In this document: positions 26,499-57,496 of the stretch, in pieces | Position numbering within the stretch: position 1 is the first letter of the stretch | Layout of the letters: each line of letters opens with the position of its first letter | Assembly (NCBI RefSeq): GCF_000701345.1 | Contig: NZ_JNIJ01000025.1 | Span: 1 to 64,000, forward strand | Reading direction: 5' to 3' | Source of the DNA: Bradyrhizobium sp. URHD0069 | GTDB lineage: Bacteria > Pseudomonadota > Alphaproteobacteria > Rhizobiales > Xanthobacteraceae | Length of the DNA stretch: 64,000 bases | Program-made: the position numbers and the translations under genes | Notes under the pieces: generated by a model | Database searches by the model: none | The model's input: only the letters and a program-made list of their open reading frames with translations | What the model was told of the DNA's origin: nothing

Positions 26499-27085
26499 GC
26501 CCCGCTGCCGCAAAGCTCGGACTTGCACCGGCCGTTGCCCCGGCCGCAACCGGCATTCTCGATCCCGCCACCGGAAGGCCGGTCGGCGCCAATGACCCTT
26601 ACTTTCTCGAGGTCAATCACGAACTGTCCGACAAGGGCTTTTTCGTCGCCGCGACCGACGACCTGATCACCTGGGCGCGCACGGGTTCGCTGATGTGGAT
26701 GACCTTCGGTCTGGCCTGTTGCGCGGTCGAGATGATGCAGATGTCGATGCCGCGCTATGACGCCGAGCGCTTCGGTTTCGCGCCGCGCGCTTCGCCGCGT
26801 CAGTCCGACGTCATGATCGTTGCGGGCACGCTGACCAACAAGATGGCGCCGGCGCTGCGCAAGGTCTACGACCAGATGCCGGAGCCGCGCTACGTGATCT
26901 CGATGGGGTCGTGCGCCAATGGCGGCGGCTACTATCATTATTCCTATTCGGTGGTGCGCGGCTGCGACCGCATCGTTCCCATCGACATCTATGTGCCCGG
27001 CTGCCCGCCCACGGCGGAAGCGCTGCTTTACGGCGTGATGCTGCTGCAGAAAAAGATCCGGCGCATCGGAACCATCGAACGCTAA
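26489..27085 (+). CDS. nuoB: NADH-quinone oxidoreductase subunit B
   Basis: Peripheral-arm subunit carrying cluster N2, the last iron-sulfur centre before quinone. The 198 aa contain the ligand cysteines in [28 protein letters not shown] and [15 protein letters not shown]. The start overlaps nuoA by 10 bp, which implies translational coupling; an upstream in-frame start at 26378 lies inside nuoA and is not used. Confidence 0.97.
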
Positions 27086-27095
27086 GGTTTTAACA

Positions 27096-27704
27096 ATGGA
27101 CGACGGCAGGCTCGACGCCCTGGGGCAGACGATTGTTGGTGCGCTTCCGGGCGCTGCGACCGGTCATTCGATCGCGTTCAACCAGCTCACGGTCACGGTG
27201 CAGGCGGACAAGATCGTCGATGTCGTGCGCTTCCTGCGAGACGATCCGGGCTGTCGCTTCGTTAGCTTCATCGATGTGACGGCGGTGGATTATCCGGGCC
27301 GTGAAAAGCGTTTCGACGTGGTCTATCACCTGCTGTCGCCGACACTGAACGAGCGCATCCGTCTGCGCGCCGAAGCCGATGAGACCACCCAGGTGCCGTC
27401 GATCATCGAGGTGTTTCCGGGTGCCGACTGGTTCGAGCGCGAAGCCTATGATCTCTACGGCGTGATCTTCACCGGTCATCCGGACATGCGGCGGTTGTTG
27501 ACCGATTATGGCTTTGAGGGCCACCCGCTGCGCAAGGATTTCCCACTCACCGGCTTCGTCGAGGTGCGCTACGACGATCAGGAGAAGAGGGTGCTCTACG
27601 AACCCGTCCGTCTCAATCAGGAATTCCGCAACTTCGATTTCCTCTCGCCATGGGAAGGGGCGGACTATCCGCTGCCGGGCGATGAGAAGAAAAGCAGCGA
27701 ATAG
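27096..27704 (+). CDS. nuoC: NADH-quinone oxidoreductase subunit C
   Basis: 30-kDa peripheral-arm subunit, 202 aa. The signature [20 protein letters not shown] and [11 protein letters not shown] are present. nuoC and nuoD are separate genes here, as in alphaproteobacteria, not fused as in E. coli. The last codons and the stop TAG lie inside a heptad repeat (gcgaata gcgagta) that flanks the inserted S23-type gene, so the C-terminal SSE is repeat-encoded. Confidence 0.97.
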
Positions 27705-27717
27705 CGAGTAGCGAATA
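27697..27717. repeat. Left heptad array of the S23 cassette
   Basis: Three tandem heptads, gcgaata-gcgagta-gcgaata, lie here. The same unit in inverse orientation (ttcgcta, ctcgcta) forms the array at 28128-28160. The nuoC stop codon is in the first junction. Confidence 0.85.
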
Positions 27718-27727
27718 GGAATGGCTG

Positions 27728-28108
27728 TTGACCGACCAATCGATCAATTCATACCGGGACCTGAGGGTATGGCAGGATGCCATGACCTTGGCGGAGTCCT
27801 GCTATCGATCGACGCGCCAATTTCCTCGCGACGAACAGTTCGGATTGACGTCGCAAATCCGGCGGGCGGGGGGATCGGTGCCAGCCAACATTGCAGAAGG
27901 TCACGGACGGGAAAACACCGGCAACTTCGTCCAGCATCTGCGAATCTCGCAGGGATCTCTGAAAGAGCTGGAAACGCACCTGCTCTTGGCGGAGCGCGTA
28001 GGCATCCTGCCGGTGCTGGATTTGCAACCGATTCTCGTTCAGTGCGAGAGTTTGGGCAAAATGCTTCGCGCTTTGATACGGTCGCTGCAGGACAAGGCAG
28101 CGAAATGA
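27728..28108 (+). CDS. Four-helix-bundle protein of the S23 / bAvd-like family
   Basis: The protein is 126 aa, start codon TTG with AGGA 8 bases before it. The opening SYRDLRVWQDAMTLAESCY and the motif SQIRRAGGSVPANIAEGHGR are diagnostic of the family encoded in 23S rRNA intervening sequences and of the retroelement accessory protein Avd. The fold is a pentameric four-helix bundle that binds nucleic acid in studied relatives. Here it is inserted between nuoC and nuoD and bounded on both sides by inverted heptad arrays. Function in this context is unknown. No reverse transcriptase or rRNA gene is in the window. Confidence 0.85.
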   Translation: MTDQSINSYRDLRVWQDAMTLAESCYRSTRQFPRDEQFGLTSQIRRAGGSVPANIAEGHGRENTGNFVQHLRISQGSLKELETHLLLAERVGILPVLDLQPILVQCESLGKMLRALIRSLQDKAAK

Positions 28109-28127
28109 TGCCCATCGCTAGTTGCAA

Positions 28128-28160
28128 TTCGCTACTCGCTACTCGCTACTCGCTACTCGC
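28128..28160. repeat. Right heptad array of the S23 cassette
   Basis: The array is ttcgcta followed by three ctcgcta units and a partial ctcgc. It is the reverse complement of the units at 27697-27717. An isolated atcgcta occurs at 28114-28120. Confidence 0.85.
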
Positions 28161-28181
28161 CAAGGCGCGGAGCGCACGTCA

Positions 28182-29372
28182 ATGACCGAGCACAATCTCC
28201 GCAATTTCACCATCAATTTCGGGCCGCAGCATCCGGCCGCGCACGGCGTGTTGCGTCTGGTGCTGGAGCTCGACGGCGAAGTGGTCGCGCGGGTCGATCC
28301 GCATATCGGCCTGCTTCATCGCGGCACCGAGAAGCTGATCGAGCACAAGACCTATTTGCAGGCGATCCCGTATTTCGACCGGCTCGACTACGTCGCGCCG
28401 ATGAATCAGGAGCACGCGTTTTGTCTGGCTGCGGAAAAGCTGCTCGGCATCACCGTGCCGCGCCGCGCGCAGCTGATTCGGGTTTTGTACTGCGAGATCG
28501 GTCGCCTGCTGTCGCATCTTCTCAACGTTACGACACAGGCGATGGATGTCGGCGCGCTGACCCCGCCGCTATGGGGCTTTGAAGAGCGCGAAAAGCTGAT
28601 GGTGTTTTACGAGCGCGCCTCCGGCTCGCGGATGCATGCGGCCTATTTCCGGGTCGGCGGCGTGCACCAGGACCTGCCGCCAAAACTGATCGACGACATC
28701 GATGCCTGGTGCGATCCGTTCCTGGGCGTGGTCGACGATCTCGAGCAGCTGCTCACCGGTAACCGCATCTTCAAGCAGCGCAACGTCGATATCGGCGTCG
28801 TCACGCTCAAGCAGGCCTGGGAATGGGGTTTTTCCGGCGTGATGGTGCGCGGCTCCGGCGCCGCGTGGGATCTGCGCAAGGCGCAGCCTTACGAATGCTA
28901 CGACGAGATGGATTTCGACATCCCGATCGGCAAGAACGGCGATTGCTACGACCGCTACTGCATCCGCATGGAAGAGATGCGCCAGTCCGTGCGAATCATG
29001 AAGCAGTGCATCGAGAAGCTGCGCGCCCGCGACGGCCAGGGTCCTGTCGCGGTGGAGGACAACAAGATCTTCCCGCCGCGCCGGGGCGAGATGAAGCGCT
29101 CGATGGAAGCGCTGATCCATCACTTCAAGCTCTACACCGAGGGATTCCACGTACCGGCCGGCGAGGTCTACGCCGCGGTCGAGGCGCCGAAAGGCGAGTT
29201 CGGCGTCTATCTGGTCGCCGACGGCAGCAACAAGCCCTACAAATGCAAGATCCGCGCGCCGGGCTTTGCGCATCTGCAGGCGATGGATTTCATCTGCAAG
29301 AACCATCTGCTGGCCGACGTCTCCGCGATCCTGGGCTCGCTCGACATCGTGTTCGGAGAGGTCGATCGGTGA
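28182..29372 (+). CDS. nuoD: NADH-quinone oxidoreductase subunit D
   Basis: 49-kDa subunit that forms the quinone pocket with NuoB, 396 aa. The N-terminus has [18 protein letters not shown], with the quinone-site histidines; the hydrogenase-derived [10 protein letters not shown] and the late [17 protein letters not shown] are intact. I start at 28182; the upstream in-frame Met at 28122 would translate the heptad repeats. The stop TGA overlaps the next gene's ATG by one base. Confidence 0.97.
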
Positions 29373-30334
29373 TGGCGGTGCCGCCCATCCAGTTTGATCG
29401 GGCCACCGGCGTTCTCGAGGGAGCCAATGCGTGGGAGCGCCTTGCCGCGCTTGCGCTGTCGTCAGGCTCGAAGGTGGCGTCGAATTTTTCCCATCGCGGC
29501 TATAACGGCTGCGCCAATCTCCTGCGCAAGACGCTGCCCGCGCGCGACATCGCGATCAAACTCAATTCGGATGCGACCTTCGCTTTTCCCTATGGCGACG
29601 GTTACTGGAGCAAGCTGCTCAACCGTTCGTTCTCCTACGAAAACGAGCTTGAACTGCTGTTTCAGGATTCCGCCGACGTCGATTATACGCTGCTCGATTG
29701 CGGCGCCAACTATGGCTACTGGTCGGTGCTGATCTCGAGCGCGCCCTACGGTTCGCACAAAGCGATCGCGATCGAGCCGTCGTCGCAGAATTTCGCCAAG
29801 CTCAAGAACAACGCCGAAATCAACGGTAACCGTTTTAAGGTCATGAAATGCGCAATCGGGGCAGCGCGCGGCACTGCGCGGCTGTCCGGCACCAAGCATG
29901 AGGCATTCAGCATTGCAGGCGGCCCCGGCGGCTGCGGTGAGGAGGTGCCGGTCATTGCGCTCGACGACCTGCTGGACGACGGCAAGATTTCTGCTGGCGG
30001 AAAGTACCTGATCAAGCTCGACGTCGAAGGCGTCGAGATTGAAGCCATCAAGAGCGGCACCCGGCTGTTGCGGAGCGACAGCGTCTTGTTGTGCGAGGAA
30101 CACGGCAACGATCCCGGGCATACCGTATCGCGGTATATCCTCGAACAGACGCCGCTCAAGCTGATCGTCTACGATCCGCGCAGCAACCGGCTGGAAACCG
30201 TGACCGAGCTTTCGATCCTCGACCGCATCAAGGTTTCAACCCACGTCGGCTATAACGTGTTCGGCACCGCAAGCGCCTTCTGGCAAGACCGGATTAGCGC
30301 CCTCAACGCCAATGCCGCGCGCCGCATGCAATGA
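29372..30334 (+). CDS. FkbM-family methyltransferase
   Basis: The protein is 320 aa. SAM motif I is YTLLDCGANYGYWSVLIS, the acidic loop is IAIEPSSQNFAKLKNN, and the FkbM signature KLDVEGVEIEAIKSG follows. Such enzymes O-methylate sugars or small molecules; the acceptor is unknown. The ATG overlaps the nuoD stop (TGATG) and nuoE follows after 14 bp, so it is co-transcribed and probably coupled. It is not a known complex I subunit or assembly factor, though methyltransferases do assist assembly of the mitochondrial enzyme. Confidence 0.88.
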   Translation: MAVPPIQFDRATGVLEGANAWERLAALALSSGSKVASNFSHRGYNGCANLLRKTLPARDIAIKLNSDATFAFPYGDGYWSKLLNRSFSYENELELLFQDSADVDYTLLDCGANYGYWSVLISSAPYGSHKAIAIEPSSQNFAKLKNNAEINGNRFKVMKCAIGAARGTARLSGTKHEAFSIAGGPGGCGEEVPVIALDDLLDDGKISAGGKYLIKLDVEGVEIEAIKSGTRLLRSDSVLLCEEHGNDPGHTVSRYILEQTPLKLIVYDPRSNRLETVTELSILDRIKVSTHVGYNVFGTASAFWQDRISALNANAARRMQ

Positions 30335-46450: not shown

Positions 46451-46520
46451 GCAGGGCCCGCGCCCCGCTCCAAAGAAACAAGCCCCGCTTCAAAGAAACG
46501 AGCCCCGCTTCAAAGAAAAA
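46451..46520. repeat. Tandem 20-bp repeats
   Basis: Units caaagaaacaagccccgctt (46471) and caaagaaacgagccccgctt (46491) differ at one base, with partial units on both sides. They abut the hairpin at 46522-46543. Confidence 0.75.
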
Positions 46521-46543
46521 AGAGCAGGGCGCAAGCCCTGCTC
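46515..46543 (-). terminator. Hairpin with T-run on the minus strand
   Basis: The perfect 9-bp stem gagcagggc / gccctgctc with loop gcaa is followed on the minus strand by six T. It may be the terminator of a lost minus-strand gene, or may serve plus-strand transcripts weakly. Confidence 0.55.
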
Positions 46544-57428: not shown

Positions 57429-57460
57429 CGCAGTTTTGGGGCGGTGGGGCGGACGGAGCG

Positions 57461-57496
57461 CCGCCTTGGTGAGCCGCCTTGGTGAGCCGCCTTGGG
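57461..57496. repeat. Short tandem 13-bp repeats before dnaE
   Basis: Two exact units of ccgccttggtgag are followed by a partial third. They lie in the 5' region between the microprotein gene and dnaE. Replication slippage can explain them. Confidence 0.75.

What the first reader, a model, noticed from the sequence alone, without database searches (positions are those of the whole stretch)
27697..28160. S23/bAvd-type gene inserted between nuoC and nuoD, bounded by inverted heptad arrays
A four-helix-bundle gene of the family known from 23S rRNA intervening sequences lies within the core respiratory operon. The same 7-mer (tagcgaa / tagcgag) flanks it in opposite orientation, 3 copies left and nearly 5 right, and the nuoC stop codon and C-terminus are made of the repeat. 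This looks like a roughly 460-bp mobile or site-specific cassette with an unknown mechanism.
Basis: partly seen in the sequence, partly recalled or inferred. Interest (0 to 1): 0.72.

Follow-up and report, generated by a model that had tools for sequence, protein, structure and literature searches.

The report
S23 gene inside dispersed heptad-repeat hairpins
A small gene of a long-unexplained bacterial protein family sits between two mirror-image runs of a seven-letter repeat inside a respiratory operon, and relatives of the gene in many bacterial phyla sit in the same setting, with repeats that also occur elsewhere in the same genomes, which suggests the protein acts on these repeats.

Summary
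In detail: an S23-family ORF (27728-28108) lies between nuoC and nuoD, bounded by inverted TAGCGAR heptad arrays. It comes and goes: 16 of 265 genomes of the genus carry S23, each with a copy at nuoC-nuoD; 25 of 30 junctions read are empty and heptad-free. Two congeners hold a different S23 lineage at the same junction.

The larger result is general. S23-family genes across phyla lie between inverted, purine-first heptad arrays (period-7 array in 155 of 169 loci, 5 of 268 random places, 8 of 211 other ORFs). Heptad type follows the S23 tree (4 changes, minimum 3; shuffled mean 22). The same type recurs elsewhere in S23-bearing genomes; here at 13 S23-less sites, hairpins where read. A 23S rRNA intervening sequence (Azospirillum) has the same anatomy.

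Best reading: S23 plus dispersed heptad hairpins form a two-component repeat system, like REPIN-RAYT in logic but with an unrelated protein without a known nuclease domain. The association is shown; binding and propagation by S23 are inferred. Strand-asymmetry and arm-matching tests were null, and no target duplication was found. Ten full-text searches showed no report of the link.

The parts
27096..27704 (+). nuoC; its last codons and stop come from the left heptad array
   Evidence: empty junctions end differently
27694..27718 (+). left heptad array, units (T)AGCGAR, three full units
27717..27720 (+). AGGA formed by the end of the last heptad, possible ribosome-binding site of the S23 ORF
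   Evidence: read by eye; inference
27728..28108 (+). S23 / 23S_rRNA_IVP four-helix-bundle gene, 126 aa
   Evidence: dN/dS median 0.107 over 78 pairs of 13 Bradyrhizobium/Rhodopseudomonas sequences
28115..28160 (-). right heptad array, inverse of the left (perfect 4.6 units at 28129-28160)
28165..28175 (+). small hairpin GCGC-GGA-GCGC before nuoD; hairpins with a GGA loop stand there in at least 20 of 42 filled sites
28182..29372 (+). nuoD

Best explanation
The cassette is the gene-bearing ('master') form of a heptad-armed hairpin element. Two inverted arrays of about four heptads, purine-rich strand first, enclose a single S23 gene. Shorter elements with the same arms and no gene are scattered through the genome, mostly at gene ends. 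The S23 protein (the Xanthomonas relative XCC0516, 2gsc, is described as a toroidal homopentamer in PMC4990558) most likely binds the arms of its own heptad type, as a hairpin in single-stranded DNA or RNA, and acts in trans to maintain or spread them. S23 has no recognised nuclease domain, so cutting and joining would be done by host enzymes or by copying (replication or reverse transcription). Shown: anatomy, empty sites, the family-wide association, co-variation of heptad type with the S23 tree, recurrence of the same type elsewhere in the genome, purifying selection on S23. Inferred: binding, action in trans, movement. Unknown: the chemical step.
For: Period-7 array (score >=10 on at least one side) at S23 genes: 49 of 50 nuo loci (8 of these repeat a genome), 44 of 47 other loci, 56 of 66 loci of a phylum-wide Pfam sample, 6 of 6 plasmid loci (6 taken of 27 records); 5 of 268 random places and 8 of 211 other ORFs in the same loci. 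Inverted pairing beating all 100 dinucleotide shuffles: 47/50, 38/47, 44/66, 6/6, against 1/268; 4/211 ORFs beat 100 mononucleotide shuffles. Purine-first rule: G>C in 121 of 125 left arrays and 125 of 128 reverse-complemented right arrays. Four heptad types, 59 of 82 rows, need 4 changes on the S23 tree (least 3), shuffled mean 22.4, 0 of 200 as low. In 28 S23-bearing genomes the GCGARTR pattern occurs in 7 of 7 of matching type and 2 of 21 others, the GGTGTY pattern in 9 of 10 of matching type and 1 of 18 others. Own genome: 13 S23-less sites, all 11 printed read as convergent arms. Genus: S23+ genomes have more array matches, median 11.5 v 1.0, 16 v 241 genomes, p 5e-9; after taking 4 matches off each S23+ genome 7.5 v 1.0, p 4e-6 (counts, S23 status). 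Empty nuo sites 25 of 30. The nfuA-tsaB hairpin is also patchy: intact in 27, eroded in 2, lacking in 19 of 48 sites.
Against: No movement was seen, and patchiness can also come from loss. No target-site duplication or exact footprint could be defined at nuoC. 151 of 241 S23-less congeners also hold arrays, 22 of them 10 or more, and the nfuA-tsaB hairpin stands in many of them. Arms of one hairpin do not share their A/G pattern more than arms of different hairpins (0.613 v 0.594; 748 of 2000 re-pairings as high; 9 hairpins). G.U against A.C arm mismatches show no strand preference (127 v 129). S23 has no nuclease match. Genome counts are not corrected for relatedness, and overlapping matches in one array are counted apart. 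Matches of 1-2 may be the S23 locus itself. In the phylum sample 22 of 66 loci fail the pairing test and 10 of 66 the period test.
Confidence: 0.55

Rival explanations
1. RNA-level system: S23 is an RNA-binding protein that recognises heptad hairpins in transcripts (operon joints, 3' ends, 23S rRNA precursors) and steers RNase III cleavage, stability or translation; the hairpins spread by some other route.
For: S23 elements lie inside transcribed units: nuo operon, and 23S rRNA in L261 and L331. Predicted transcript hairpin with paired arms, z -5.0. The Coxiella IVS is excised by RNase III (PMC4990558, passages). Of 13 own-genome hairpins 10 overlap the neighbouring ORFs by 22 nt or less and lie at their ends.
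Against: No strand asymmetry in arm mismatches, which pairing in the S23 sense RNA should give (127 v 129). Arm-matching test null. At least five of the 13 own-genome hairpins lie between convergent ORFs, so not inside an operon. These tests are weak, since mostly transitions at the R positions vary.
Confidence: 0.25
2. Heptad hairpins are independent repeats (slippage-prone or quadruplex-forming) and S23 genes merely insert into them or are captured between them.
For: Many congeners have heptads without S23. Heptads in Xanthomonas and Nostoc were described without any link to a gene (PMC4692102: abstract, passages and Discussion).
Against: The 25 empty nuoC-nuoD sites read have no heptads, so there is no sign of a pre-existing hairpin there. 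Heptad type follows the S23 tree, including an Acidobacteriota MAG (L057) and two Planctomycetota MAGs (L040, L062) with GCGA-type arms whose S23 lies in the mainly alphaproteobacterial part of the tree.
Confidence: 0.12
3. S23 is an old, vertically inherited accessory gene of the nuo operon (a complex I helper) that has been lost repeatedly; the heptads are an operon-internal hairpin.
For: Same junction in Bradyrhizobium, Rhodopseudomonas, Rhizobium, Agrobacterium, Nitratireductor and others. In the main Bradyrhizobium clade S23 distance correlates weakly with nuoC/nuoD distance, r 0.35, 12 of 2000 permutations as high.
Against: Only 16 of 265 genomes of the genus have it. Two congeners carry a different S23 lineage there (S23 distance 0.355 and 0.369 against a clade mean of 0.174, with ordinary nuoC/nuoD distances). 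Many S23 elements lie elsewhere.
Confidence: 0.05

Closest known systems
23S rRNA intervening sequences (IVS) with S23 ORF (Coxiella, Leptospira and others)
   Same: S23/PF05635 gene between inverted repeats within a transcribed unit; L261 (Azospirillum 23S rRNA) has heptad arms of the same style. The Coxiella paper describes tandem heptamers (GACAGAT), variable in number, upstream of its S23 ORF (PMC4990558, passages).
   Different: Here the host is a protein operon, not rRNA, and the arms recur in gene-less hairpins through the genome. The Coxiella paper reads its S23 ORF as undergoing reductive evolution; here dN/dS is about 0.11.
REPIN-RAYT
   Same: Dispersed inverted pairs forming hairpins, and a single-copy partner gene linked to the same repeats (PMC3116915, passages).
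   Different: Partner is a four-helix bundle, not a Y1 tyrosine transposase; the repeat is an array of heptads, not a REP.
Heptameric G-rich repeats of Xanthomonas and Nostoc (Rehm et al. 2015)
   Same: Heptad arrays, preference for four units, 70 convergent inverted pairs in X. campestris, mostly non-coding near gene ends (PMC4692102).
   Different: Interpreted as quadruplex formers of unknown role; a word search of the main text gave 0 occurrences of 'S23' or 'four helix'. X. campestris XCC0516 is an S23 protein (2gsc, E 2e-22); whether GGGAATC arrays flank it was not tested.
DGR accessory protein Avd / bAvd
   Same: Related protein family; weak matches (bAvd 25.8 bits, cut-off 40; Avd 20.3 bits, cut-off 80).
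   Different: The match to PF05635 and TIGR02436 is far stronger; reverse transcriptase and template repeats were not searched for.

Membership tests
S23 / 23S_rRNA_IVP protein family (PF05635, TIGR02436) | profile score above curated cut-off | tested here: met
   PF05635 123.1 bits, cut-off 33.8; TIGR02436 119.8, cut-off 24; NF008911 172, cut-off 137
S23 / 23S_rRNA_IVP protein family (PF05635, TIGR02436) | related solved structure | tested here: met
   2gsc XCC0516 E 2.3e-22; 2rld E 0.0028; by sequence only, no model was built
23S rRNA intervening sequence | inserted within a 23S rRNA gene | tested here: not met
   site is nuoC-nuoD; no Rfam match in 27000-29000
23S rRNA intervening sequence | S23 ORF between inverted repeats | tested here: met
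23S rRNA intervening sequence | RNase III excision of the transcript | not testable with these tools
   needs RNA data; predicted fold only
REPIN-RAYT | Y1 (HUH) tyrosine transposase as partner | tested here: not met
   the S23 ORF matches only PF05635 and bAvd in Pfam and four-helix families in NCBIfam; the rest of the genome was not searched for RAYTs
REPIN-RAYT | dispersed inverted repeat pairs forming hairpins | tested here: met
   13 S23-less sites in the own genome, convergent arms in the 11 printed; orthologues of one
REPIN-RAYT | single-copy partner gene flanked by the same repeat | tested here: met
   one PF05635 match in the own genome, heptads on both sides
DGR | Avd equivalog score | tested here: not met
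   NF033474 20.3 bits against cut-off 80
DGR | reverse transcriptase with template and variable repeats | not tested
   no search was made
MITE / insertion sequence | target-site duplication and defined ends | tested here: inconclusive
   filled and empty nuoC ends compared by eye; no clean duplication, replaced segment ambiguous
MITE / insertion sequence | transposase in the full-length element | tested here: not met
   the S23 ORF has no transposase match; overlapping mechanical ORFs were not scanned

The most novel reading that the evidence does not exclude
S23 proteins are the dedicated trans-acting factors of a previously unrecognised, widespread class of hairpin repeats: each S23 lineage recognises and propagates its own heptad by a route that needs no transposase of its own, and the 23S rRNA intervening sequences, the heptad repeats of Xanthomonas and Nostoc and this nuo cassette are all products of that one system. 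The typical arm of 31-32 nt would even fit four to five heptads on a pentameric ring, one per subunit (speculation).
Probability: 0.35. Interest if true: 0.93.

Novelty: categorically new. Interest (0 to 1): 0.85.

Why it matters
The S23 family is known from 23S rRNA intervening sequences and is still called functionally uncharacterised in the papers I saw (PMC4990558, PMC11270868, passages), and heptameric repeats have been reported from several genomes without a partner (PMC4692102). Tying the two together gives the family a general genomic setting and gives the repeats a candidate protein. It makes both questions testable with one binding assay and one deletion. If S23 does spread the hairpins, it is a repeat-propagating system built on a protein with no known nuclease. 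I rate it 'categorically new' because neither nearest kind passes its own membership test here (not in rRNA, no Y1 transposase); a reader who counts IVS elements broadly could fairly call it a new variant of that kind.

Tried and rejected
G.U against A.C test for RNA-strand selection on the arms of 79 loci (only loci whose arms aligned with score 12 or more; identical arms dropped): 127 v 129, null.

Arm-to-arm A/G pattern matching in 9 own-genome hairpins found by a strict pattern: null.

Rfam scan of the junction for a known RNA: none. Defence families (PADLOC): none.

Old nuoC tail to the right of the right array: my first reading, dropped after looking at 42 filled sites, where that stretch is often a small hairpin of varying sequence (20 of 42 with a GGA loop by script).

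nfuA-tsaB hairpin: I first took 25 of 28 sites as showing it to be old and general. Those loci were the best matches to a query that contains the hairpin, so the count was biased. Reading 20 of the other 50 genomes gave 2 with the hairpin, 2 with eroded remnants by eye and 16 without. Total 27 intact, 2 eroded, 19 lacking of 48.

Literature: ten searches over open PMC papers only; none of the listings or passages I saw joins S23 to dispersed heptads. Subscription papers and preprints are not covered.

One search used a wrong BLAST column and is void; one search replaces it. My own S23 profile did not recover L178, the second PF05635 match of G176, so that locus is in no count.

Rows dropped: in the trees eight loci that repeat other loci's genomes and proteins under 100 aa were left out (82 rows kept; 23 of these in no heptad type). 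In one search the same repeats and identical S23 DNA were removed (166 to 164 loci, 159 with both flanks). One search keeps the repeats and uses loci with at least 100 nt on each side. From I used 29 returned loci and 40 fetched regions (66 with both flanks); 15 rows at the end of its list were left out, mostly partial matches but one nearly full length (G317).

Full report
Observation. An S23-family ORF (27728-28108, +) lies between nuoC (27096-27704) and nuoD (28182-29372), with three TAGCGAR units on its left and 4.6 perfect inverted units plus degenerate ones on its right. The arms are 86-91% complementary and pair in the predicted transcript. The nuoC stop lies in the left array. The ORF is preceded in frame by a TAG of the last heptad, and an AGGA from that heptad ends seven bases before its TTG start (read).

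It comes and goes. Of 265 genomes of the genus, the own genome included, 16 encode a relative of this S23; named records that match these loci make the genus Bradyrhizobium. All 16 loci have nuoC and nuoD hits on the two sides. PF05635 in 257 genomes also gives 16, one with a second, divergent copy. Of 30 nuoC loci, the best matches among 60 genomes, 5 hold S23 and 25 are empty, with 2-26 nt from the end of the nuoC match to nuoD and no heptads. The filled sites diverge just after the codons for Asp-Glu-Lys near the end of nuoC. In the S23 tree, whose bootstrap had not settled, the clade of most Bradyrhizobium with Rhodopseudomonas (97/94) excludes two congeners, L019 and L020, which form their own clade (100/97). 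Their S23 distance to the main clade is 0.355 and 0.369 against a mean of 0.174 within it, while their nuoC and nuoD distances are ordinary. So the junction was filled at least twice in the genus, or its S23 was replaced. Distances inside the main clade correlate weakly with nuoC/nuoD (r 0.35, 12 of 2000 permutations as high), so inheritance with loss also plays a part.

The pattern belongs to the family. I asked whether S23 genes in general lie between inverted period-7 arrays. The test took about 160 nt on each side and compared the inverted alignment with 100 dinucleotide-preserving shuffles. Inverted pairing beat all shuffles in 47 of 50 nuo loci (8 of them repeat a genome), 38 of 47 other loci found by similarity, 44 of 66 loci from genomes drawn evenly over the phylum and searched with the Pfam model (59 of 398 genomes had a match), and 6 of 6 plasmid loci (five cyanobacterial, one Azospirillum; 6 taken of 27 records). 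Random places in the same loci gave 1 of 268. A period-7 array on at least one side was present in 49/50, 44/47, 56/66 and 6/6, against 5/268. Other ORFs in the same loci gave 4 of 211 for pairing (100 mononucleotide shuffles) and 8 of 211 for period 7; the single ORF with arrays on both sides (L034 4698-5069) is itself a second S23 gene. Seven is the best period in 155 of the 169 loci, eight in 6. Ten phyla as labelled include loci whose pairing beat every one of 100 shuffles; many are metagenome bins, so single labels may be wrong. Loci that fail include L035, L076, L077, L079, L085, L090, L096 and L101.

The units differ by lineage: TAGCGAR, TAGSCAR, AGGTGTY, AGGATTC and others. They obey one rule. 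On the S23 sense strand the left array has G over C in 121 of 125 loci, and so has the reverse complement of the right array in 125 of 128, out of 159 loci; median tract length is 32 and 31 nt. Four unit types (59 of 82 rows) on the S23 tree need four changes, one more than the minimum, against a shuffled mean of 22.4. Close relatives inflate such clustering. But L057 (Acidobacteriota) and L040 and L062 (Planctomycetota) carry GCGA-type arms, and their S23 lies in the mainly alphaproteobacterial part of the tree, apart from most others of their phyla.

The same heptads recur in the genome without S23. In the own genome the GCGARTR pattern has 36 matches and its reversed control none, at the S23 locus and 13 other sites. 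All 11 whose sequence I printed read as convergent arms around a short loop; a strict pattern recovers 9 hairpins. By greedy longest ORFs, 5 of the 13 sites do not overlap an ORF, 5 overlap by 7-22 nt at an ORF end, and 3 overlap by 40-94 nt. In the listed (partial) matches of six genomes, tracts within 150 bp of each other are plus-then-minus 24 times and minus-then-plus 0 times. Over 28 S23-bearing genomes that I picked by heptad type, the GCGARTR pattern occurs in 7 of 7 whose S23 has that type and 2 of 21 others; the GGTGTY pattern in 9 of 10 of its type and 1 of 18 others, that one with an equal reversed control. Five of 7 and five of 10 have five or more matches; the rest have 0-2, which may be the S23 locus itself. 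In the genus, 167 of 257 genomes have matches. The 16 with S23 have a median of 11.5 and the 241 without 1.0; 90 of the 241 have none and 22 have ten or more. This is not corrected for relatedness.

One dispersed hairpin was followed across the genus, between nfuA and tsaB (gene names recalled from the translation; C17:92350 of the own genome). Among the 28 resolvable of the 30 best-matching loci 25 have it, a set biased by a query that contains it. Among 20 of the other 50 genomes 2 have it, 2 keep eroded remnants and 16 lack it. One S23-bearing congener (G031) lacks it, and many S23-less ones have it. It is thus patchy, by gain or loss.

Link to intervening sequences. In L261 (Azospirillum lipoferum plasmid AZO_p2) and L331 the S23 gene lies inside a 23S rRNA gene, and both are flanked by inverted heptads (L261 read). 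The Coxiella IVS paper describes tandem heptamers (GACAGAT), variable in number between strains, before its S23 ORF, and RNase III excision (PMC4990558, passages). Heptad repeats in Xanthomonas and Nostoc, with 70 convergent pairs in X. campestris and a preference for four units, were described as quadruplex formers of unknown role (PMC4692102: abstract, passages, Discussion). X. campestris XCC0516 is an S23 protein of solved structure. I did not find the two observations joined in print in ten searches (listed in Tried and rejected).

How it might work. S23 is a functional protein by selection: median dN/dS 0.107 over 78 pairs of 13 Bradyrhizobium/Rhodopseudomonas ORFs, one further ORF with an internal stop left out. 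Its conserved core (Q43, R46, S50, N54, A56, E57, G58, R61, G76, S77, E80 in this protein) gives no nuclease match. S23 follows the 3' end of a greedy ORF on the same strand within about 125 nt in 11 of 14 non-nuo loci looked at; where Pfam named the upstream neighbours they were unrelated (ATP-grasp, asparagine synthase, M24 peptidase, YicC, DUF4159; 5 upstream ORFs named of 6 scanned). The most economical account is a master element carrying the factor and gene-less hairpins that the factor acts on in trans, as in REPIN-RAYT (PMC3116915, passages), with S23 in the place of the transposase. I hold the association itself at about 0.95, a functional link in trans at about 0.7, and movement by S23 at about 0.5.

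Results against. Arm mismatches show neither RNA-strand preference nor arm-to-arm matching. No target duplication was found. S23-less congeners with many arrays exist; they may have lost S23, but this was not tested. A third of the phylum sample (22 of 66) fails the pairing test. The RNA-processing rival stays open.

Noticed in passing
window 28165-28175 and the same place in filled sites: Between the right array and nuoD many filled sites have a small hairpin of differing stem sequence (GCGC-GGA-GCGC, GCAGC-GGGA-GCTGC, CGCAAG-CGGAG-CTTGCG) with GGA in the loop, at least 20 of 42 by script, shortly before the nuoD start; it looks like a repeated solution for starting nuoD translation once coupling to nuoC is broken.
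   Followed up: partly
L034 4698-5069: A second, distant S23 gene, itself with period-7 arrays on both sides, lies just after nuoD in Amphiplicatus metriothermophilus.
   Followed up: partly
L284, L298, L301, L305, L313: In some genomes of the same order as the own genome (family f24) the arrays at S23 have period 8 instead of 7, with TAGGGGAG- or TAGGGCAG-like units.
   Followed up: no
L178 (G176:C155): One congener has a second, divergent PF05635 gene (E 5e-21) on another contig than its nuo copy; my own profile did not recover it.
   Followed up: no
window about 29374-30334: An ORF after nuoD looks like an FkbM-type methyltransferase (translation; name recalled, not searched), an odd passenger in the nuo operon.
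   Followed up: no
L037 about 2497-2970: Here a long extra stretch, apparently with a further ORF, lies between nuoC and the S23 element.
   Followed up: no
window 46462-46522 and 57460-57495: Short tandem arrays: three 20-mers GCCCCGCTTCAAAGAAACAA and 2.8 perfect 13-mers GCCGCCTTGGTGA.
   Followed up: no
genomes G251, G140, G260, G079, G195: Congeners without a PF05635 match yet with 17-33 heptad matches; in G079 many of these are long single tandem arrays.
   Followed up: no
L341-L360: Several nfuA-tsaB junctions that lack the heptad hairpin hold another inverted repeat instead (CATGCCCGGGCTTGTCCCGGGCATCCACG type), so different hairpin repeats seem to use the same gap.
   Followed up: no
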